From Ceratodon purpureus (taxonomy: Eukaryota; Streptophyta; Bryopsida; Pseudoditrichales; Ditrichaceae), in the NCBI GenBank assembly GCA_014871385.1, contig CM026429.1, positions 17,154,751 to 17,218,750 of the forward strand: a stretch of DNA of 64,000 nucleotides, read 5' to 3'. Shown piece after piece: positions 6,877 through 64,000 of the stretch (within the stretch, counting starts at the first letter, position 1; the number at the start of each line of letters is the position of its first letter). A program made the translations under genes and the position numbers. The notes below the pieces were generated by a model. It did no database searches. It saw only the letters and a program-made list of their open reading frames with translations, and was not told where the DNA came from.

Positions 6877-7724
6877 TGATCATCGGTTGCTATCTGATGA
6901 GAAGCTTAGAAGCTGATTGTACATTTTGCACTTGAAGGTGCTAATAGCCTGCTCAGATGCTCTTCCAACTCTCTGTAAAAAATTGCTCATGTTTCAAATC
7001 AATTAATTTATCAAATGAGCCGATATTCAGTTCGCACCAGAGTCTGTAAATCCTTTGGATTAACAACCATAATTTGTTACCACGGCAAGATTCTCAATAG
7101 AAACAGCATCTTTAGTAAGCAACAATCAAGCAGGCACATAACAACGTCACGTTCTATGCTCAACGACGTATATGTATCACTTTTACTTGCATTCACCAAT
7201 TACAAAATCTCACGAAAAATCCTAAAACTAAATAATACGGTAAACTCAAAATTAAGTTCCTGACCAGAAGCAACAATGTAGTGCCCAGTCCCACAAGCCC
7301 TGCCTCGTGTGCCACCAAAAAGAAAAGACAAGAATACATGGTTACACAATCACCTCTGACCAATGCTAAAGAGGCACACAATCATGTGTAAAGTAGAACT
7401 ACTACTGTGTCAAAATGTTGTACCTTCGAACACTACACCTAGAAGGAAGCTTCAGACACTCCCTATGAAGGAACCTACATGTAAGCTTACGTGTTGTAAC
7501 TACGTGCTCAGTTCTGGTATATCCAGAACGTGCTAAATTTATCAACCCCTCGTTGAGTGCTCCCTGTAAATATTAATGGAAAGAATTCCCCTTCTCACTT
7601 GAATTTCACAGACAAGAAACATGCATGGGTATCCCTCGGGGTCAAAATGCCTAATGCGGTCCTCTAATCATTTACAAGTGAAGGCGGGGGGTTTCCTTTC
7701 GGACGAGAAAATGCAGATTAAAAG
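6877..7724. other. Convergent 3' region between two genes
   Basis: This stretch separates the stop codon of the plus-strand pseudokinase from the stop of the minus-strand Golgi-family gene, and should contain both 3' UTRs. The open frames here (7015-7263, 7193-7381) are short, of low complexity and without homology. Confidence 0.5.
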
Positions 7725-9466
7725 TTACTCTGCCAGATGTTTGGCCGTCCTCTTTTGAAGCCCATTCGCATTCGCGTACACAAGGCTTTCACCACTCGTC
7801 GGTTTTCCCCAATCTAGCGCAATCAAGCAAAAGGGGTTGTCAGAGTGGCCTGAACAAAGAACTCAGTACTTTACGCTCCAAAGATTAGGCAGCGTCAGCA
7901 CAAGCACACATTTCAAAGGAAGATCACAAGCACATCACAGATAATATAAAATCGAATTAGAATCCTTCAGAAATTTGTATAGTACAAACTAAAATGACAC
8001 AATAACAGTCACTGAACCAAACAAGATTTACTTCGTGTACAAATTCCAGGTCAATCAAGTGCATGCTAATCCAGCCACATTACTTGGCCATGATACCGAC
8101 TGCTGTAAGAGCAATTTCATAAAGACGAAGACACTCTCGTGGTCCTTAAACATGGTAACCAGATGAATGACAAACTCTAACTAAAATAAAGGTTTATTTG
8201 TGAAATATGAAATAATCACAGAATGATTAAGAGTTTGATAATTTCAGGCAGAGCTTCAACATTATTATTAGTTACATGTAGTACACTGTATTCAATCACA
8301 AGTAACAGTAACTGACCTTGATCCTTCCCACCAATTTTCTCTTTGGTGGTTGCTGAAGAATCATCACCTGAACCAAACTCGCTGGCTGTTGCATATTTCT
8401 TGATTCTCCACGTGATCATTACACTTGAAAGAATTCCGATGGCAGGGAGAACGTAGGGCAATATACCGGATTTGGCGTGATTGGTACCGTCAGCTCCAAG
8501 ATGCGTGGCAGCACTAGTTAGACTCCCAATCGAAGTGTTCTGGATAATCATAGGCAGCCCTCCTGCGATTGTGGGAAGAAGGAAGTCGACGAAGAAGCCA
8601 ACATCCGTTGCTGCGAGCCCATAGTTGATTATGTAGGATGGGACAGGCGAAAATCGTGCCAGAAGGACGAACTTCCAGCCATCTCGTGCAACACCTTTGC
8701 ATAAAATATTAAAATATTTGTTCTTCTTCACCACATTGCTCGCCCAGTCAGAGTTCCGGAATAAAGCCCTGCAATAAAACGTACATGACCAACGTATTGA
8801 CTTCGTCAAACAAGCTCACATAAAGACATTATCAACCCCATCCTTCCAATTTCGATGTCAAATCGATCATGCCATACAAAGAAAAATCTTAAGTCTGTCA
8901 TGAATAAAACCGGAAATTAGGGTTTTCGCTATGCAGAAGATAACCAATCCTACGAAATCAGTGAATCGGGCGATGCAACTTAAGTACCACAACTTCAGTG
9001 CCAGGAATTATTCATACAAAACCAGCTCTTGAGGAGTACAAGACTGTAAGACTTCGCCTGAAAGAGGATAGGCAACTAACTGTATGTTACAGCGATCTGA
9101 ATACAAGATAGGAGCAAAGAGCAAGGAAAGTCAATTAAAGGGACAAGGAGCAGACCTGCCAAGCCAAAACGCAAGAGCTGCGCCCATGACTTTGGCAGAG
9201 AAAACGCAGAGAACACCTCGAAGGAAACCAAACAGAAAGGATGCGGCGGCTTCGAAGACGATGGCGTAAGGGAAACACAAGGCAATGGCAACGGTATGCA
9301 CAAAAATAAACACAGGCATCGCAGACGCCCCCAGCCTCTCCGCCAGCACATGAAACCCATCCATCATGGCCTGCTTATCGCCTCCATAGGCATTGCTCAC
9401 CGCAACATACAGCCCCCCCGTCGTCACCAGCAGCCCCAGCAACCCTAATTTGGCCCCGTTGCCCAT
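7725..9466 (-). CDS. SNARE-associated Golgi (TVP38/TMEM64, VTT-domain) membrane protein
   Basis: Three exons on the minus strand (9466-9156, 8768-8317, 7813-7725) splice in frame to 283 residues. The terminal exon was found from phase: a donor CAAG|GTCAGT at 8317 joins an acceptor GCGCTAG before 7813, giving DWGKPTSGESL and ending HLAE-stop. The start MGNGAKLG precedes a first hydrophobic segment. The core motif RFSPVPSYIINYGLAATDV and the following DFLLPTIAGGLPMIIQN are typical of the plant SNARE-associated Golgi protein family (Arabidopsis At1g71940 type). Members are multipass proteins of the Golgi and endosomes related to bacterial DedA proteins, thought to act in vesicle traffic or lipid scrambling. 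The hydrophobic segments fit about five or six membrane spans. The C-terminal tail is polar. It is convergent with the upstream pseudokinase and divergent from the RELCH-like gene. Confidence 0.88.
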
Positions 9467-14400: not shown

Positions 14401-17400
14401 GCAGCATTGAAAAGCCCAGAGGAAAATTCGGAGTCAGAAGTTGGAACTGCAGTGTCGGAGGATGTAATTGCAGTTGGGAAGATGAAGATACCACCCATTG
14501 AAAGTGGTGGTGCAATTGAGGACTTCAATTTCGTGGAAGATATATTAGCAGTTATATTAGAGAACAGTATGATTCTCATAGATAGCAATGGACGTATAAC
14601 TTCAGGAGGACATGACAGTAGGGAGGATACACTTTATGCCAACGCGCCTGTAAGCTCGATAGAGTCGGAGAATCAAAACGAACCAGTATGTTCCTTTATT
14701 CTATGCTGTTACGCTTCGTTTGCTGAGGCTGTTATTCTTTCTATCTTCTCAGGCATGGGTAGCAAATCTAATATTTGCTGCATGTAACTACTGAAGGTTC
14801 TGCACTTTCTGTGAAAATGACGACACAGGATGCAAAGCTAACTTTGTGCCTTCTTTGTTAGCAGGAAGTTGAAACTGTGCAGATATTGGCAGATGCTTTG
14901 CCCAAAATAGTCCCTTATGTGCTTATTAACCACAGAGAGGTTTTTCCTTTACCCATTCTCTAAACGATGATACTTACGGTTTCACACATGATAGATGAAT
15001 TTATTTTCTAGTTACCTTCGTGCAAATCTGTGTTATTAACCACTTAGCCGTAACCTGTTTTATTAAACACGAGATTCACGTTCTACTCACGTTTGCAGGA
15101 ACTTCTGCCACTGATTATGTGTGCTATTGAGAGGCATCCGGAGAGCACGGTCCGAGATTCGCTTACGCACCTCCTCTTCAATTTGATCAAGCGACCGGAT
15201 GAAGGGCAACGGCGAATCATTATGGATGTAAGAATTTTTTTTTTCCCCTGAATAATTGTTGTTACTTCTTTGGTGCAGGCAGAATTGATAATCAGGAGCA
15301 GTGAGCGTTCCTCGATCAACTAAGCTTCCAAGTGTTCAGAGTCCAGTCTTTCATGCCTTGTCTCGATCTTGTTCTGATTTCGGCATGATTCTGCTTAAGT
15401 TCCTTTAATTTGACTTTTTTTGGCTCTTGCTGTTATTGAAAGTAAAGCTTTTAATGTTCATTTGTTAAGCGATGTGGTTCTTTTACAAAAATTTCTAATA
15501 CGGTATACAGATATGTGAGAAATTACATCTGTTAACATGCAATACTTTCTGTGAAATGCAGTAGAAACTGAAAACAATTGTATCACGTTTCAGGCATGTG
15601 TAGAGCTTTCCAAGAATGTTGGTCAATTGCGGACAGAAACAGAGTTACTACCGCAATGCTGGGAGCAGGTATGTACTCCAGCCTCCATTCTTTATTACAG
15701 TCGGCAAAATGTTGATTTCCTTTTGGATTGTTAAGCACCTGCGAGTGTGACGAACCGTTGGTTCGTTGTTACCTCCTTTGCTCTATGGGTTCTGATTATA
15801 TGATGGGTTGCCGACAGATTGATCATAAATATGAGGAACGGAGACTGCTGGTAGCGCAATCGTGTGGGGAGTTGGGCCAGCTAGTGGGATCCGAAATGCG
15901 AACATCTCTAATCTTATCGATCATACAGCAATTAGTCAGCGATCCGGCTTCGGTAGTGCGGGAAGCTGCGGCTCATAATTTGGCTTTACTGCTGCCTCTC
16001 TTCTCCAACATGGACAAGTATTCCAAGGTCAGCCTTGCCATGGTGCCAATCTACGGAGCTGCATTTTGACCTCCTGGCTCGCTGGGGGCACAAAGTAAGC
16101 ACTGTAGTTTGGGTTCCTGTAGAGTTTTAGTGTAGACCCTTTTGTGTCATATTGAATATGACAAAACTTAGCGATCTTCCACATTCAATATATCAAACTC
16201 CTAGATCAGTCGACTGCTATGTTCTCAGTAGGACATGTAAGAACTGAAGTGGTGACATGTTCTCGTCGCATAGTTTGAGGTGAGATAGTATATAAGCTTG
16301 AAGGTTGTGGAGATTCATCGAAGGATCCAGTTCGTTATTGTTTCTGCACTCTATCCTATAATATATTATTGCTTCTGCTATGCATTTGTCATTAAATTAT
16401 CTTCCTTGGTGAGGGTACTGACAGTGACGCTGTTTTGCACAATCACAGGTGGAGGATTTAATGTTTGCCTTGGTTTGCGACCCTATGGGCCCTGTTGTTG
16501 ATACATCATTGAGGGAGCTTGTTCCTGCATTGCTGGCCTGGAAGAAACGTGAACATCAATCTCTTTCTCAACTTTATAAGGGACTCCTCTCGAGGCTTCT
16601 AATGGCTGCTCAGGTGAATCACTTATTTTCTTAGAATGCCATTGTGATTGTTGTTTTGTGATGTTGTAGAATTTGCATTCAGCTATTTCGGAAGCCGAGA
16701 GTAATCTCCACGTTCCTCTGTTCTCATTACATGATTTTGGATATTTGTTTTACGAACTATGAGGGCTGCTGAGGTCTGACATCTTAGTTCCACGATTATT
16801 AATGCGGCTATTATTTACTAGTGATTATAATTACATCGTTCCGACTCTGCAGCGATGTCCGCCCGTATCAGGAGTTGAAGGTACTGCAGAGGCACACCTT
16901 CGCACGCTGGGGGAGAGAGAACGGTGGAATATCGATGTCTTGCTTCGCTTGCTCACTCAGCTACTTCCAGAGGTGCAAGAAGCTGCTATTGAGGCATATC
17001 CACTTCTTAGTAAAATACCTGACGCAGTGGAAGGTGGAGCCTTCTTCACTCAAGACGTTGTCAAGGCGTACGTTGGGTAAGCATTTGTTTGTTGTTCTGC
17101 CGGTAGTGGTGATGCAGGGCGTAACCATGATCTATTTCTACTCTAGAATAGCAATTGAAGTTCACGCATACCATAGGTTCAGACTTTGAAGTACTTTGTA
17201 ATATATGATTAATTTTATCTATTTCACTTTTTCTTTGTTGTATTTATGATGTTTTCTTGCTTGCTATGGGTTAAAATTTTATACTCTGTGGGGATGGAAC
17301 TCCAGATCCAACATGGATTGGCCAGCATTTGATTGGCTAGTTACAGACTGCTTACAGACAGTTCTCCAGCTTGCACGTATGCTTCCTCCTCGAGAGGAAA

Positions 17401-57671: not shown

Positions 57672-59220
57672 TTACGTTGTGTTCCGGACTAGATATCTCG
57701 TATTCCACTTCACAAAGATTGATGACCCAGATTTTTTGACAACCGCGTCTCCCAGTACTGCAAACGGTTGTCTCTCTTCGATGTGCATTAATTTGCACCC
57801 CGGTTCTGAAACAGAGTGCACTTGGACCATTTGCTCTCCCTGGCTGCACAAATGGCCCAATCTCTGTGTTCTGCATTTCCATGAACCACCACTCTTCCCC
57901 TCTGCAACTACCTTGTCGGGAAAATCAGGATGGAGAATATAAACCGGCTTGTTACAAGCAATAGGGTCCGTTGTCAACCGAGGAAGCATCAAAAGACCAT
58001 GTCGAATGCGTTCACGAGCAGGACGTCTCAACGTACCTTCCTCGGCCTTAGTCGTGGGCTTTTGCCTGGTGGCTACTCTGGAGCCTCCGCTAGGTGATGA
58101 CGGAATTCCCTCGGTCCCTGCAGTTGTCCCCGCGTCAACGGCACCCAATATCCTTTCACCTCTCCAGTCTTCGTTGCGATCGAAGTACCCGTCCAAGAAA
58201 GGTTTAATCGGACCCGCAGTCGGAGAGGGTGCACGGATGGAATGAGAAACAGAGGTGGAGATTACACTTGGAGAGTGAGGGCGTGGAAAATTAGGATTCC
58301 GCAGGTCCATACTCGGGGTTATAAGTACAGTAGATCCTGACATCCACGACGAGGGTGGTTGAGCAGGAGACAGCGGGTCTGTTAATTTGGTAGGAGGAAC
58401 GTGTTCGGCTGGTGGCTCAACACTTGGAGTCATTTGCTCTGGAATCGAGGGCGGTGTGGCTTCTCTAGAGAGGGACGCATGCACAGTTTCTTCAGGGACA
58501 GAAAAGTCACCAACTCCGCCCATTGCAGGAGGAGCCGTCGGCTGCAGTGCAGCATCCACGGTGTCCTCTGGTGAACTAAGATTGCGGGTTAAATGCGGGA
58601 CTAGGGAGGGAGGGATACTGACCGGGAGAGTGTTGCCAGATTCACCCTTGAGGCATCGCATGAGAAGTTCTGTGACGAGGTTTTGTCCGTCGAGTACTTG
58701 CTTTAGGGACTGCTCGTTGCTCGTCACCTGAGTTGAAATTTTAGCGACAACTGATTCCAATGCGTGTATACGACTTGAATTTTGAGAATGCGCATTCGAG
58801 TGGGAGGACATCGTACCCCGTGGTCGAGTATAATCCGGAGTTGCTGACTGCCACATATTCGAGTAAATAAGCATGGTTAATGTATGATATGTGACTGTGG
58901 TGGACTGTGAAAGCACTACACGCTCCAGTAATACACTTAAAGCATCATACAACTTAAGCAACAACACGGTTTGAATAGTATACCAAAACGGACCAATTTG
59001 ATGGTAAGGCATAGAGGAATCTTACCATTGGGTACAATGGGTGGCCTCCAGGACATGCTGCTGCGGTAACAGATGCAGTGGTCACTGGAGTTAGTCGAGG
59101 AGAGTCTTCACTGTCGGTGAAGAGTGATGACATGCTCCTTTCTGTAGTCGGAGTCGCTCCAGTTCGAGCCTCGATGTGCACTGGTTCTCCCCCGCTTGGC
59201 TTTGCACAATCCGATGACAT
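57672..59220 (-). CDS. Coiled-coil protein with DUF8039-like C-terminus, probably transposon-encoded
   Basis: Two minus-strand exons (59220-59026 and 58847-57672) join in phase 0 to 456 residues, starting at ATG 59220 (MSSDCAKPSGGEP). A short coiled coil lies at about residues 90-135 (ALESVVAKISTQVTSNEQSL). Then come about 200 Pro/Ser/Thr-rich residues and a folded C-terminal module of about 90 residues (KPVYILHPDFPDKVVAEGKS, QPFAVLGDAVVKK, FVKWNTRYLV). That module recalls the DUF8039-type domain found at the ends of plant transposon proteins. The resemblance is from memory of the pattern, not a search. No catalytic motif is seen. It follows the ParB-methyltransferase gene on the same strand 1.2 kb away, so both may belong to one mobile element. 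Confidence 0.6.
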
Positions 59221-60381
59221 AAACGTGGAAGTCAGTAGAATTAAAGTACATTTTTGTGAAGAACTTTGTTTTAGGTTGAACCCAATGTGAATTACTTGTT
59301 TGTCTCAGAAAGATTGCCTTGTCATGGAGATAGTCATCTTCTTAACTCGCAAAACCCATTACAAAACAAAATGAAAAAAAAGATAAAAAACGACGCCTCC
59401 GCTATGTACCCTTTTAGGAGCTCCAGTTAGGACTTCAAGGAAATTTAAAACAGGAGGGAGTCTTGCTCCGAAGTGTCCACTGTTGATATAACGGTAATTA
59501 CAAGCACAGATATGTTGTACGACAAAGAAAGGCACGGTAGAGAAGAGGGCTTTTAAGCGAAAAAAATACATTTAAAACACACTGAAGCTGTGACCATGTA
59601 CCCCTCCCAACCCCGGGAGGCCCATCTGCGCTACTCAGAGGACAACACAGTTGACGTCGCAAAAAAAGAAAGTTGAACTGGGGCAACAGAAGAAGACTCG
59701 TTTCTTGACGGGGAAAGTTAGCATGTGAGCGGAGAGCGGAGAGCGGAGAGCAGAGAGCAGAGAATGGAGAGCAGAGATTTGACATTTAGCCAAATTTTTT
59801 AAAGCAAAGTAAACCCTATAACCGTGGAAAAAAACTAAAAAAAGGTATGGTTTTTTTACTTTTTTTAGTAAAGGAGCGTATTCCCGTGGAATTCAGGGAT
59901 ATGTCTGGTAAAAATTTTCTTACGTTTTATTTTTTTGGTACAAATTAGGGCTGATGTCATGATGACGTCATCCATTCAATCCTTTAGATTTGGTACCTTA
60001 TTGGATCTAGATAGGAGTATTCCAGCATCATGTTCTTAGATCAGAACATTAAATATTGAATAGAAAAGTAAAGGAAAAAAGAAATCACAAAAGCTAAAAT
60101 TTATGGTCTAAAACCTGAAACTTTATGGTCTGAAAGCTAAAGTTTATGGTCTGAAACACTAAATTTTGAGCATTTATTTTATAATATTTCACTCTTCGTG
60201 TTATATTTTGAGCTTCACAGTTGGCGTTTCATCCTTTACATAACCCGAGACGAATTGGAAATGAGAAACATAACTACTTTAAGATGTTTGGAGTATAGTA
60301 GACGAAGGAATAGGCAATGAACTCCAATTCAATCAAATCAAATCAAATGCAAACAATGAAAGACCGAAGCCTCGTTCAAAC
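59221..60381. other. Spacer between two co-oriented genes with short tandem repeats
   Basis: No gene is supported. A GGAGAGC-type heptad array lies at 59728-59775. A roughly 20-base unit (TTTATGGTCTGAAAGCTAAA) is repeated about three times at 60096-60170. The stretch should include the promoter of the 57.7-59.2 kb gene and the 3' UTR of the methyltransferase-like gene. Confidence 0.5.
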
Positions 60382-63300
60382 TCACAATATGCTAGAATCA
60401 CTACTTCCATCCTCAGAACTAGATGACTCGGAATCTCCTTCTACCGCCTCGTCATCGACGAATATCACAGCCCTAGGATCAAAAGTAGTTGGCCGACTAG
60501 GAACATATGTGAGGGCTCCAGATTGAAACGCCTGTGCTAAGTCCTCCGCGTACTCCGGAAGTATGAAAGGCTGAATCGGGCTGGAATGAAGACGCCACGA
60601 TGGAGTGGACACTGATGTTGGCCCACGTGGCGGTGTTGCCGAAACTACTCTGCAATAGAAAACCGATTGTGGTTAGATTGAATACGTAGAGGTGCAAAGA
60701 GAAGAAATGCTTGGAGAATTTGAACAAAGAATAGAAGACTTACACCACTTATCAGGTCTTCTTGCTCTCTTTGGAGGCGCTTCGTCTGCTGCTGCCGGCC
60801 TAGGATGTTTAGGAGGGCCCATGGCAGATGACGTAGCCATATACGGTTTGAGAAGTGCGTTGAAGATGGCTTCGTCCTCCTCACAAGCTATAATATGACG
60901 ACCAATACTCTGGCAAGCCTTGAGGGAGGCACCTGAAAACACGTAGCATAGATAAGTAGTGAGTTCCGGTGGAGAAAATCAGAGGATTGGAAATGCAGAA
61001 ACTGTTATTGGAGGATTACCTGTTCCCGCCGACCACTCGAAGACTATGTCACCGGGCTTGGTCATCTCCTCAATGATGCCCTGCATCATCTCAGGGGCTT
61101 TCTCCCTCGGGCCTCTCCACGGTACCTCTCCATTCATAAGCTGCGAGTTTAGCTGGGTGAAGTTAAGAATGGCATCACTCTCGGTAATGTGGAGGTCGTT
61201 GTGAACGACATCGGATTTCTTCGTTTGAAAAGAAAACTTGGATGGGGGGGTACCACCACGAATGAAGACGCGCACCCAGAATCGAAGAGACTGCGAGAAA
61301 CAACAATGTGTAAGTTCAATTAAGAAGATAACTTAGTAGAATTCAAAGACAAGCACAGATTATGATGTACATACCAAGGAGCCGGGCATCGTTGGGTGAG
61401 CCAAGCCTAGTCCATTGAAGCCCCACCAGTCTCGGTGCTGCACGAAGCCATCCTCAGCAGCAACTTCGGAAATCTTCGAAGCGAGACGTTGGTCGTTGTT
61501 GTGGATGATGCAGAGAGCACCATCAAACTGCAAGAAATGTCTTGCGAATTCGAAGAGGTCATCCAAATAATCCTTGCCGCGTTTGTTCCAAGGCGGAGGG
61601 ACGTAGGCGGGATTGGATATGGTGGGGACCGGAAGATTCTCAGGAATGTCGGCAATGATCAAGTCGAATCCCAAGTGATTCTCCAGTTGGCATCTCTCAG
61701 GAACTCGGCTGTCGCGGCCTCCTCCAAACTTGAATAAACAAGAAATCAGAGTTAGAAAATATAAGGATTACAGAATATCAGGATTCAAGGGAAAGAATGA
61801 AATAACGAATCATACCATTCGAATGATGTCTAGAGCCTTGTTCCATTCGGGATCGCCACCAACGTCTTCAAGTTCCTTGTGTCGGGATAGAACCAAAGGC
61901 ACAGAGGAGTTGATGACATAAACCTGAGAGGAATTGAGAGTTCCAGCCGAAGAGGTACTCTGTGGGAATGTCTTGGCTTTCCTCTGCTCGAGGAGACTTC
62001 TCGTGACCTCGGAAGCACTGATCGAGGAAGGAGCCGGCGAAGAAGCTGGCTTCGTAACGACAATACCTGGAGAGGGCTCTGGTTCCTTCTGTTTTGGCTG
62101 GGAAGACGCCGCACCGGTTTGCTGTGATGCCTCCGACTTAGAACGAAGAGATTTCAGTCGCCTCCCTCTCCCTTTCTTTGGTGGAGGAGCGGAAGATTGA
62201 TCCTCCTGTCCTTCGTCTTCGTCTGCACCATCGAAGGAGGCTTCCACCACCACCTCACCGGCATCGTGTAGCATCTTGACGTCCGCCTCCGAGTCAATAG
62301 TGAAACCACCAATACAATCAAGATACCAGCATCCAGCATCCAGGTGAGCAGCTTTGTACCTTTTAATCTGCTGGGGAGAGTACATACATTGGTCCGATGT
62401 TGTCTGCGTCCAAAGCTTGAAGTACTTGGGGAGCTGCTGAACGCTGATGGCTCCCTTCAAAATAAGCTCTCGCTTGAAGTACCTAAGGTAAGACATATAG
62501 AAGGTAAGTATTTGCAATGAAAATTATGAAATGGAAATGCGATTAAGTTACTTCACGTACCGGTAAGTAACCCGCTTCACAACTTCAGCGGTTCCAGGGA
62601 ATTTTGCGAAGTCGGACTTTTTGTCGAAGTGGTTAACAGCCTTTTTTCCAATGAACGTAGGGAAGGCCTTGTCCCACAAGAGAATACGTGAACTCTTGAC
62701 AAAATCGCCCGGCTGTTGGACATCAGGAAATGCCATCCAATTGATGTCGAGGTTCTCCCTTTTGATTACGTCCTCGACTTCGTAAATGACGGCTTCCTCC
62801 AACTGTAATACAAAAATCATATAAGTTGCAACCAAGAAGGTATACGGTAAAAAAACAAGGGAATAATGAAACGAAGAGGATTTTGTATGGAAAGTACCCC
62901 AGCCCAGAATGAAGCCTTGTTCAACCATGGGTCCAGTTCGGTGTCTTTGAATTCAGATGGCAGAAATCTGTAAGACGTTCGAGCAGTCGGGGATGAGTTC
63001 CACCACTTCAACCAACGAGCCTTGTATTTGGCCTCAACGGCGGCTGGAACAAACCTCTGAAGCTTTTCGAGCGACATCTCAGGCTTATTATTGAGACTGT
63101 AATGGCGATTGATCTGCAAGAAGCACCGAAGATTTTAAAAGGATTAGTATAGAAATTATTGAAGACAACCGAAACAGTGAATGGAACAATGTCCAGTGAG
63201 TCACCTCATTGAGGAAGTCGTCACCATTCTTGGGATTTGCGATAGCCAAGTACTTGGTAAAGTCCTTCTTCTTGATGGCTTCGACCATTCTATCCATTGC

Positions 63301-64000
63301 CTCATTCATGACATCCCAAATTGCACTTGCAGACTGCTCATTCTCGGGTGTCTTCTTGCGATAGGCATTGGCTGCTTCATCGGAGGCCGCAGCAAGTTCC
63401 CGCTGTAGAAAGATAATTAAGGCTTAGGAAATTCCATGGGTATTGAATAATAAGAAGCAAATAGAGAGAGGAGGTAGGACTTACTCGGTACAGAAAAGCG
63501 ATGAACACTTTAGTTGTCAAGGGAAACCATGAGGGATTAGGTGGCTTGTTCTTCAGACATGCGTCATACTCCTGAGGACTGAGGAGGTCTTTAAATTCCT
63601 CCAGCTTCATCATTCCGAAAGAGCGGATTCGAAATAGTTTGGCGGGGAGATTACTCTTCACGTAGTCATTCTCAGTCGACCTGAAAACAAACCACATTAC
63701 GTATGATGAATAATGGAGATGAGATAAAGTAACAAATGGAATAAGAGGAACAAATGGAACAAGTACTTACCAGTTGATGTCATGCATTGCGTGAAGAAGA
63801 CTGCCAACATGGCCACGGGGGTCGAGGACTATGCAGTGCACAGATATGTGCCATGACGGGTCGTCTGCATGATGCTTGTTGATATGACGAAGCCATGCTG
63901 AGAGGCGATGGTTACCTTCCCAGACAAAAAACATCTTCCCCGAGAATTGCGACCACTCCTCGTCACTTTGAAGCTCAGATTCAAAGGCATCATTCGCGTC
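60382..64000 (-). CDS. ParB-like plus DNA-methyltransferase-like protein (5' end beyond window)
   Basis: Ten minus-strand exons (64000-63771 partial, 63680-63485, 63402-63205, 63113-62898, 62802-62561, 62482-61816, 61728-61375, 61290-61020, 60932-60744, 60647-60382) stay in frame and give 942 residues up to the stop. The first exon carries a ParB/sulfiredoxin-like signature (FFVWEGNHRLSAWLRHI). About 470 residues of unknown fold and a Ser/Pro/Lys-rich linker follow. The C-terminus looks like a permuted beta-class N6/N4 methyltransferase. First comes a motif IV region (FDLIIADIPENLP, then LFEFARHFLQFDGALCII). Then follow PWRGPREKAPEMM and a motif I (GDIVFEWSAGTGASLKACQS, RHIIACEEDEAIF). The usual DPPY-type catalytic motif reads DIPE, so activity is doubtful. 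An acidic Ser-rich tail ends the protein. Such multi-exon genes in plants are probably derived from mobile elements. The last junction (TGGT|GTAAGT to GCAGAG|TA) was chosen to avoid a stop. Confidence 0.7.

What the first reader, a model, noticed from the sequence alone, without database searches (positions are those of the whole stretch)
60382..64000. Plant gene joining a ParB-like domain to a permuted DNA-methyltransferase module
The N-terminal FVWEGNHRLSAW signature and C-terminal FEWSAGTG motif I with RHIIACEEDEAIF resemble bacterial or phage ParB-methylase proteins, yet the gene has at least ten exons with plant splice sites. It suggests a domesticated or mobile eukaryotic adenine- or cytosine-N4-methylase-like system.
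Basis: partly seen in the sequence, partly recalled or inferred. Interest (0 to 1): 0.75.

Follow-up and report, generated by a model that had tools for sequence, protein, structure and literature searches.

The report
Moss jumping gene's altered DNA-methylase protein
The gene is a cargo gene of a large, high-copy and apparently recently active transposon in what looks like a moss genome; it makes a bacterial-type DNA-methylase-like protein whose key active-site residues appear to have been replaced, so it probably binds DNA for the transposon rather than methylating it.

Summary
Ten exons (nine GT..AG introns) at window 60382-64000, minus strand, the first continuing past the window, encode about 1,010-1,060 residues. 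It is not a domesticated single gene: at least 40 loci in the same 362-Mb genome carry it (85-100% identity). It lies in a 15.5-kb DNA transposon (window 59710 to about 75210) with exact 10-bp target duplications in 4 of 4 copies testable. An opposite-strand gene looks like a Mutator-type transposase. The C-terminal domain is a permuted beta-class amino-methyltransferase (Pfam N6_N4_Mtase above cut-off; solved-structure hits). But where the catalytic (D/N/S)PP(Y/F/W) is expected, 12 of 12 copies (four lineages) read D(I/V)PE, while the gene is under purifying selection. I favour a catalytically altered, DNA-binding accessory protein over an active methylase; motif placement rests partly on a weak alignment. 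The ParB-like call rests on a conserved GNHR signature; HMM and profile tests found nothing and the fold prediction failed. ParB-methyltransferase genes published in algal transposons are close precedents. Apparently new: a moss-type, Mutator-like carrier; the changed motif; and a neighbouring small ORF with RNA-polymerase-II-tail-like heptads under strong constraint.

The parts
59710..64000 (-). Gene-side part of a 15,501-bp DNA transposon; the rest lies beyond the window (to extended coordinate 75210, loci L009/L010)
   Evidence: Ends read from copies with different flanks; element lengths 15,167-15,501 in 4 copies
59700..59709 (.). 10-bp target-site duplication (the other copy lies just past the far end of the element)
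   Evidence: Identical 10-mers flank 4 of 4 copies with both ends in hand: window copy, L002, L003, L007 (window letters)
59710..59780 (-). Element terminus with GGAGAGC-type subterminal repeats, inverted relative to the other end
   Evidence: About 45 bp inverted match between the ends, score 68 against a maximum of 34 in 300 single-base shuffles; the sequence is repeat-like, so that control is weak
63771..64000 (-). First ParB-methyltransferase exon (continues to about 64354 outside the window); holds the GNHR ParB/Srx-like signature at 63893-63931
   Evidence: Open frame, donor GTAAGT; signature kept in a 32%-identical relative
63485..63680 (-). Exon 2
   Evidence: Spliced frame; flanking introns GT..AG in 10 of 10 copies
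63205..63402 (-). Exon 3
62898..63113 (-). Exon 4
62561..62802 (-). Exon 5
61816..62482 (-). Exon 6, includes a basic low-complexity linker
61375..61728 (-). Exon 7: expected motif IV region of the methyltransferase, reads DIPE (within 61627-61665) where catalytic enzymes have (D/N/S)PP(Y/F/W)
   Evidence: A weak alignment segment (3.5 bits) to a solved DpnA-type methylase puts DPPYNISV opposite it; non-canonical in 12 of 12 copies
61020..61290 (-). Exon 8: motif X and motif I (GDIVFEWSAGTG)
   Evidence: PF01555 and PHROG matches
60744..60932 (-). Exon 9: post-motif-I region (GRHIIACEEDEAIF)
60382..60647 (-). Exon 10, acidic/serine C-terminus and stop

Best explanation
The gene is an accessory gene of a high-copy, apparently recently mobile 15.5-kb Mutator-like DNA transposon in a moss-type genome. 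Its protein combines a ParB/Srx-like N-terminal region with a permuted beta-class amino-methyltransferase domain whose catalytic motif appears replaced by D(I/V)PE. Most likely it is a sequence-specific DNA-binding protein of the transposon: the former methylase domain (and possibly the ParB-like region) recognises the element's own repeats, and the bound protein keeps the element accessible, either by countering host silencing, as VANC proteins do for VANDAL Mutator-like elements, or by assisting the transposase. Shown: copies, ends, target duplications, gene structure, methyltransferase relationship, D(I/V)PE at the expected motif IV place, purifying selection, pairing with a transposase-like gene in divergent element families. 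Inferred: loss of catalysis, DNA binding, anti-silencing or cofactor role.
For: At least 40 loci at 85-100% identity (where 40 of 964 first-look candidates were scored), 7 of them, the window copy included, at 99-100%. 10-bp target duplications in 4 of 4 testable copies. Opposite-strand gene in two ORFs with a CxCP..CKH SWIM-like finger and conserved GFMAD(S/N)AQANW and CxFHW, also in a 44-59%-identical relative and in relatives at 65-78%; Pfam SWIM E 0.015, below cut-off. Methyltransferase relationship. D(I/V)PE in 12 of 12 copies, and motif I further altered in the distant relative. dN/dS window copy against the 85% copy: 0.16 in the first part, 0.24 over the whole gene. The same two-gene layout in the distant relative L032/L022. 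Precedent for anti-silencing accessory proteins in Mutator-like elements: PMC13317346 passages, PMC5735166 and PMC10398659 (start of abstract in the listing).
Against: No expression, binding or methylation data. Motif IV was placed by position, conservation and a weak alignment segment (3.5 bits, not significant by itself); the local profile-profile match covers only the motif X-I part. The window copy has NPAY a little downstream, which resembles NPPY, though it is NPTY in the 85% copy and absent from L032 and L024. Nine of the 12 copies are at least 97% identical, and the distant relative L032 has an in-frame stop, so it is a decayed copy. Selection is weaker in the methyltransferase part (ratio 0.44, codons 700 on). 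No sequence or fold proof of a ParB domain. No Pfam MULE match; transposase model poor (pLDDT 45). An unusual motif IV need not mean no activity.
Confidence: 0.45

Rival explanations
1. It is an active DNA N6-adenine or N4-cytosine methylase that tags the transposon's own DNA despite the unusual motif IV, as suggested for algal ParB-methyltransferase transposon proteins.
For: Domain and motif order fit; the gene is conserved; the Ectocarpus paper proposes self-modification (PMC12477816 passage). The first, acidic residue of motif IV is kept, and motif IV placement is not proven.
Against: The second residue and the aromatic last residue of motif IV are changed in 12 of 12 copies, P to I/V and aromatic to E; the distant relative also departs in motif I.
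Confidence: 0.22
2. A transposition cofactor only: the protein bridges, clamps or nicks the element ends for the transposase, with no role in silencing.
For: Both ends carry GGAGAGC-type repeats; bacterial ParB-methylase Bce_0392 is described as having nonspecific nicking activity (PMC5512222 passage).
Against: ParB domain not established; no nuclease or binding data.
Confidence: 0.2
3. A captured passenger gene with no function for the transposon, carried by hitch-hiking.
For: Plant transposable elements capture host sequence (PMC13317346, title and start of abstract in the listing).
Against: Purifying selection between families, introns kept in 10 of 10 and frame in 8 of 10 copies, and the same layout beside a 44-59%-identical transposase gene.
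Confidence: 0.08

Closest known systems
ParB-methyltransferase accessory proteins of algal DNA transposons (Ectocarpus Sola1-1_Ec32; green and red algal cases cited there)
   Same: Large DNA transposon; long protein with ParB-like plus amino-methyltransferase domains; gene on the strand opposite the transposase (PMC12477816 passages)
   Different: Carrier there is Sola-1 in Ectocarpus; here an element with 10-bp duplications and a SWIM-like finger in a moss-type genome, with a non-canonical motif IV. Whether the algal proteins keep DPPY was not checked: I had no sequences of them
Bacterial ParB-methylase Bce_0392 and phage/plasmid amino-methyltransferases
   Same: ParB plus adenine methylase in one chain (PMC5512222 passage); methyltransferase domain related to phage enzymes
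   Different: The 3 phage enzymes printed here keep DPPY (3 of 3); the moss protein has nine introns and a long central region with no family match
VANDAL elements and VANC anti-silencing proteins of Arabidopsis
   Same: Mutator-like element with an accessory protein; functional analogy only (PMC13317346 passages)
   Different: No sequence relationship shown; VANC was not compared
Catalytically inactive methyltransferase partners such as METTL14 (recalled, no call)
   Same: Methyltransferase fold kept with a changed motif IV
   Different: Different class and context; analogy only

Membership tests
Beta-class amino (N6A/N4C) DNA methyltransferase, PF01555 | Profile match above curated cut-off | tested here: met
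   28 against 26.7 bits for the window protein, over the C-terminal 56 residues of the profile; distant relative 26.1, just below
Beta-class amino (N6A/N4C) DNA methyltransferase, PF01555 | Permuted order: motif IV before motif X/I | tested here: inconclusive
   Motif X/I and what follows are well aligned; the segment holding motif IV aligns upstream as expected but only at 3.5 bits
Beta-class amino (N6A/N4C) DNA methyltransferase, PF01555 | Catalytic motif (D/N/S)PP(Y/F/W) | tested here: not met
   D(I/V)PE at the expected place in 12 of 12 copies
ParB/Srx superfamily | Profile similarity to ParB | tested here: inconclusive
   No ParB match in Pfam, PHROGs, NCBIfam or PDB sequences; hhalign with five SopB-type ParB sequences 1.0%. 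Three-row alignment, only one ParB subtype tried, no positive control
ParB/Srx superfamily | GxxR-type signature in an N-terminal domain | tested here: met
   FVWEGNHRLSAW or FVFDGNHRTRAW found in 12 distinct copies; that this is a ParB/Srx signature is recalled, not from a model
ParB/Srx superfamily | ParB/Srx fold | tested here: inconclusive
   AlphaFold2 with 3 rows gave pLDDT 34
Mutator-like elements (MULE) | 8-11-bp target-site duplication | tested here: met
   10 bp in 4 of 4; range from PMC6446971 passage
Mutator-like elements (MULE) | Transposase with DDE/MULE domain | tested here: inconclusive
   No Pfam MULE match; conserved acidic and CxFH motifs, whose reading as MULE-like is recalled; poor fold model
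Mutator-like elements (MULE) | Zinc finger, commonly SWIM | tested here: inconclusive
   CxCP start in 3 lineages, CKH seen in the window copy and L022; Pfam SWIM E 0.015, below cut-off
ParB-methyltransferase transposon accessory proteins | Encoded in a large DNA transposon opposite the transposase | tested here: met
   transposase identity itself not proven
VANC-type anti-silencing proteins | Binding to element motifs and loss of methylation there | not testable with these tools
   No methylome or binding data

The most novel reading that the evidence does not exclude
The transposon carries a coordinated expression kit: a ParB-like/pseudo-methyltransferase protein that marks the element's own DNA by binding rather than by methylating, plus a separate small protein imitating the RNA polymerase II tail, which recruits or diverts transcription factors so that marked copies stay transcribed in a methylating plant genome. 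This would be an anti-silencing system built from a dead bacterial methylase.
Probability: 0.12. Interest if true: 0.87.

Novelty: new variant of a known kind. Interest (0 to 1): 0.6.

Why it matters
Transposons in brown, green and red algae (by report) and now a moss-type genome carry ParB-methyltransferase-like proteins, which suggests a recurrent transposon strategy. If the moss version is non-catalytic yet conserved, the shared function may be recognition of the element's own DNA rather than a new DNA mark, a testable question that also cautions against reading such genes as evidence of 6mA or 4mC in plants.

Tried and rejected
Domesticated host gene: rejected, at least 40 loci. Bacterial contamination: rejected, nine introns with GT..AG in 10 of 10 copies and copies across many large contigs. 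Close relatives in viruses or prokaryotes: peptide-pattern scans gave no confirmed relative in viral contigs (0 of 54 matching stretches; 0 of 73) or genome contigs (0 of 139); they reach close relatives only. ParB by fold and by profile: no support. Transposase fold: failed; no fold search was run on these poor models. The CTD-like ORF as first exon of the ParB gene: not favoured, because its constrained frame runs past a possible in-phase donor to a stop of its own in the 85% copy; RNA data are needed. Literature: 10 full-text searches showed the algal precedent but no moss or Mutator-type case. Iyer 2011 was seen only as a citation; Petroll 2025 and a BioEssays review recalled by DOI are not held; no preprints are held. 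A 6mA survey across eukaryotes (PMC12695648, passages) names neither moss nor land plants nor ParB in its main text. Genome-wide census of divergent relatives: not possible, the protein query got no answer in 17 tries.

Full report
What is there. On the minus strand of window 60382-64000 ten exons splice into one frame. The last acceptor as first chosen broke the frame; a site two bases further in restores it (exon 10 = 60382-60647). This model has GT..AG introns in 10 of 10 aligned copies and no internal stop in 8 of 10 (L008 and the C13 copy each have one stop near the N-terminus). The first exon continues to about 64354 in locus L009. From the methionine just before the ParB-like core the protein has 1,009 residues; the frame is open for 1,060. 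The true start is not known.

It is one of many copies. A DNA search of the window's own assembly (362,488,568 bases, 151 contigs; window = C9:17154751-17218750) returned 42 matches, which I read as 40 loci plus a second piece of one locus and one 41-bp fragment. Twenty-five loci are near full length at 91-100% identity, 13 are about 85% identical, and two are partial or split. Only 40 of 964 first-look candidates were scored, so this is a lower bound. Contig sizes (one of 110.5 Mb, others of 16-29 Mb where shown) resemble the moss Ceratodon purpureus as I recall it; a review table gives 358 and 349.5 Mb for its two assemblies (PMC13120521 passages). The species is an inference.

It lies in a transposon. 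Aligning copies with flanks shows homology that starts and stops at fixed points. The element is 15,501 bp in the window copy (59710 to extended coordinate 75210) and 15,167-15,420 bp in three others. Exact 10-bp duplications flank 4 of 4 copies for which both ends were fetched; for the other four of the eight copies assembled with flanks the far end was not fetched. The two ends share about 45 bp of GGAGAGC-type inverted repeats (score 68, at most 34 in 300 single-base shuffles; a weak control for repeat-like sequence). Three of these eight copies sit in or next to related elements: L007 inside a relative's transposase gene, L008 at the broken end of exon 7 of a relative's ParB-methyltransferase gene, and L005 about 0.6 kb from a relative's transposase reading frame (with my arithmetic).

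The partner gene. On the opposite strand of the element two long ORFs of 777 and 505 residues (element 5108-2778 and 2756-1242) look like a Mutator-type transposase: GFMAD(S/N)AQANW, CxFHW and a CxCP...CKH finger are shared with a 44-59%-identical relative. SWIM is the only Pfam hint (E 0.015, below cut-off); no MULE match was found, and the fold model failed. With a 10-bp duplication, inside the 8-11 bp given for Mutator-like elements (PMC6446971 passage), Mutator-like is the best label but not proven. The same pairing occurs in the distant relative at L032/L022, whose transposase gene is split by the L007 insertion and which carries stops.

The methyltransferase domain. Pfam N6_N4_Mtase matches above its cut-off (28 against 26.7 bits); PHROG 3008 E 4.6e-11; 98 of 50,697 phage records match by tblastn at E up to 0.01, the best listed 5e-7; a profile search of solved structures finds a DpnA-type adenine methylase (5hfj, E 7.5e-7) and CcrM (6pbd, E 2.4e-4). 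Nearly all this score comes from the motif X-I region. A second, weak segment (3.5 bits, not significant alone) places DPPYNISV of the bacterial enzyme opposite D(I/V)PENLPV; the CcrM alignment starts just after it; the local profile-profile match with five phage and plasmid enzymes (97.9%) covers only motif X-I. So D(I/V)PE is motif IV by position, by the hydrophobic strand before it and by conservation, not by a strong alignment. In 12 of 12 distinct copies with this exon in hand it is DIPE (10) or DVPE (2, L033 and L032), never DPPY-like. Nine of the 12 are at least 97% identical, so this is about four lineages; the most distant (L032) is 38% identical over the domain, is a decayed copy with a stop, and reads VDVTAATG at motif I instead of FEWSAGTG. 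NPAY slightly downstream in the window copy is not kept in L024 or L032. The three phage enzymes printed keep DPPY (3 of 3). Selection, window copy against the 85% copy: dN/dS 0.16 over the first 477 codons compared, 0.34 in the middle, 0.44 in the last third (dS only 0.10 there, where exons 7-10 are 93-99% and introns 6-9 86-99% identical, as if exchanged between families), 0.24 overall.

The ParB-like region. Independent support is missing: no Pfam, PHROG, NCBIfam or PDB-sequence match, 1% in a profile comparison with five SopB-type ParB sequences, one tblastn hit in phages at chance level (E 9; the reading frame was not identified further), and a failed AlphaFold model from three rows (pLDDT 34). 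I treat ParB as plausible but undecided.

A third ORF. Between the 211-bp tandem array and the ParB exon lies an ORF of about 143 codons with five YxPTSPx heptads like the RNA polymerase II tail, a proline/serine stretch and an arginine-rich end. Window copy against the 85% copy: dN 0.026, dS 0.435 over 138 codons, a lower ratio than any part of the ParB gene in the same pair. The window copy has an in-frame stop; intact copies exist. The heptads were found in 11 copies of the window's family (window, L002-L008, one on C12, two on C1) and in the one 85% copy fetched, with fewer unbroken heptads in some, and nowhere else in the loci then fetched, the relative at L032 included.

Interpretation. 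A long conserved protein whose expected methylase motif is changed in every lineage seen is better explained by binding than by catalysis. Accessory proteins that recognise their own element and relieve silencing are known for Mutator-like VANDAL elements (PMC13317346 passages; PMC5735166 and PMC10398659, start of abstract in the listing), so I rank self-recognition with anti-silencing or cofactor function first. Active methylation is the main rival.

Known precedent. Dinatale and co-authors (PMC12477816; [quoted passage not shown] The kind is therefore known. The moss-type host, Mutator-like carrier, changed motif and heptad partner are what I did not find in print in the ten searches named in Tried and rejected.

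Noticed in passing
L009:1500-1931, minus strand (extended window coordinates 64500-64931): Small ORF with five RNA polymerase II tail-like heptads (YMPTSPV x3, YEPTSPG, YMPTSPP) and a basic end, dN 0.026 / dS 0.435 against the 85% copy; the window copy has an in-frame stop, other copies are intact.
   Followed up: partly
L007/L022/L032, L008/L024, L005/L018: Three of the eight copies assembled with flanks are inserted in or beside related elements, suggesting possible self-targeted insertion; the background density of relatives is unknown and four far flanks were not fetched.
   Followed up: partly
Window exons 7-10 against L033: The 3' third of the gene is far more alike between families (exons 93-99%, introns 6-9 86-99%) than the 5' part, pointing to exchange between element families.
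   Followed up: partly
L009:2362-4631; L032:5790-6779 and 6973-8099: Tandem arrays with different units in the two element families (211 bp x 10.7; 150 bp x 6.6 and 149 bp x 7.6); candidate binding sites.
   Followed up: no
window 60090-60160 and L024:9709-9786: Short repeats of about 21 bp (TTTATGGTCTGAAAGCTAAA type) at the gene-side end of the window element and in a related element.
   Followed up: no
G000:C1:18488176-18501016: Two copies of the gene in the same orientation 9.2 kb apart.
   Followed up: no
window 57672-59021, minus strand: A 449-codon open frame just outside the element, not identified.
   Followed up: no
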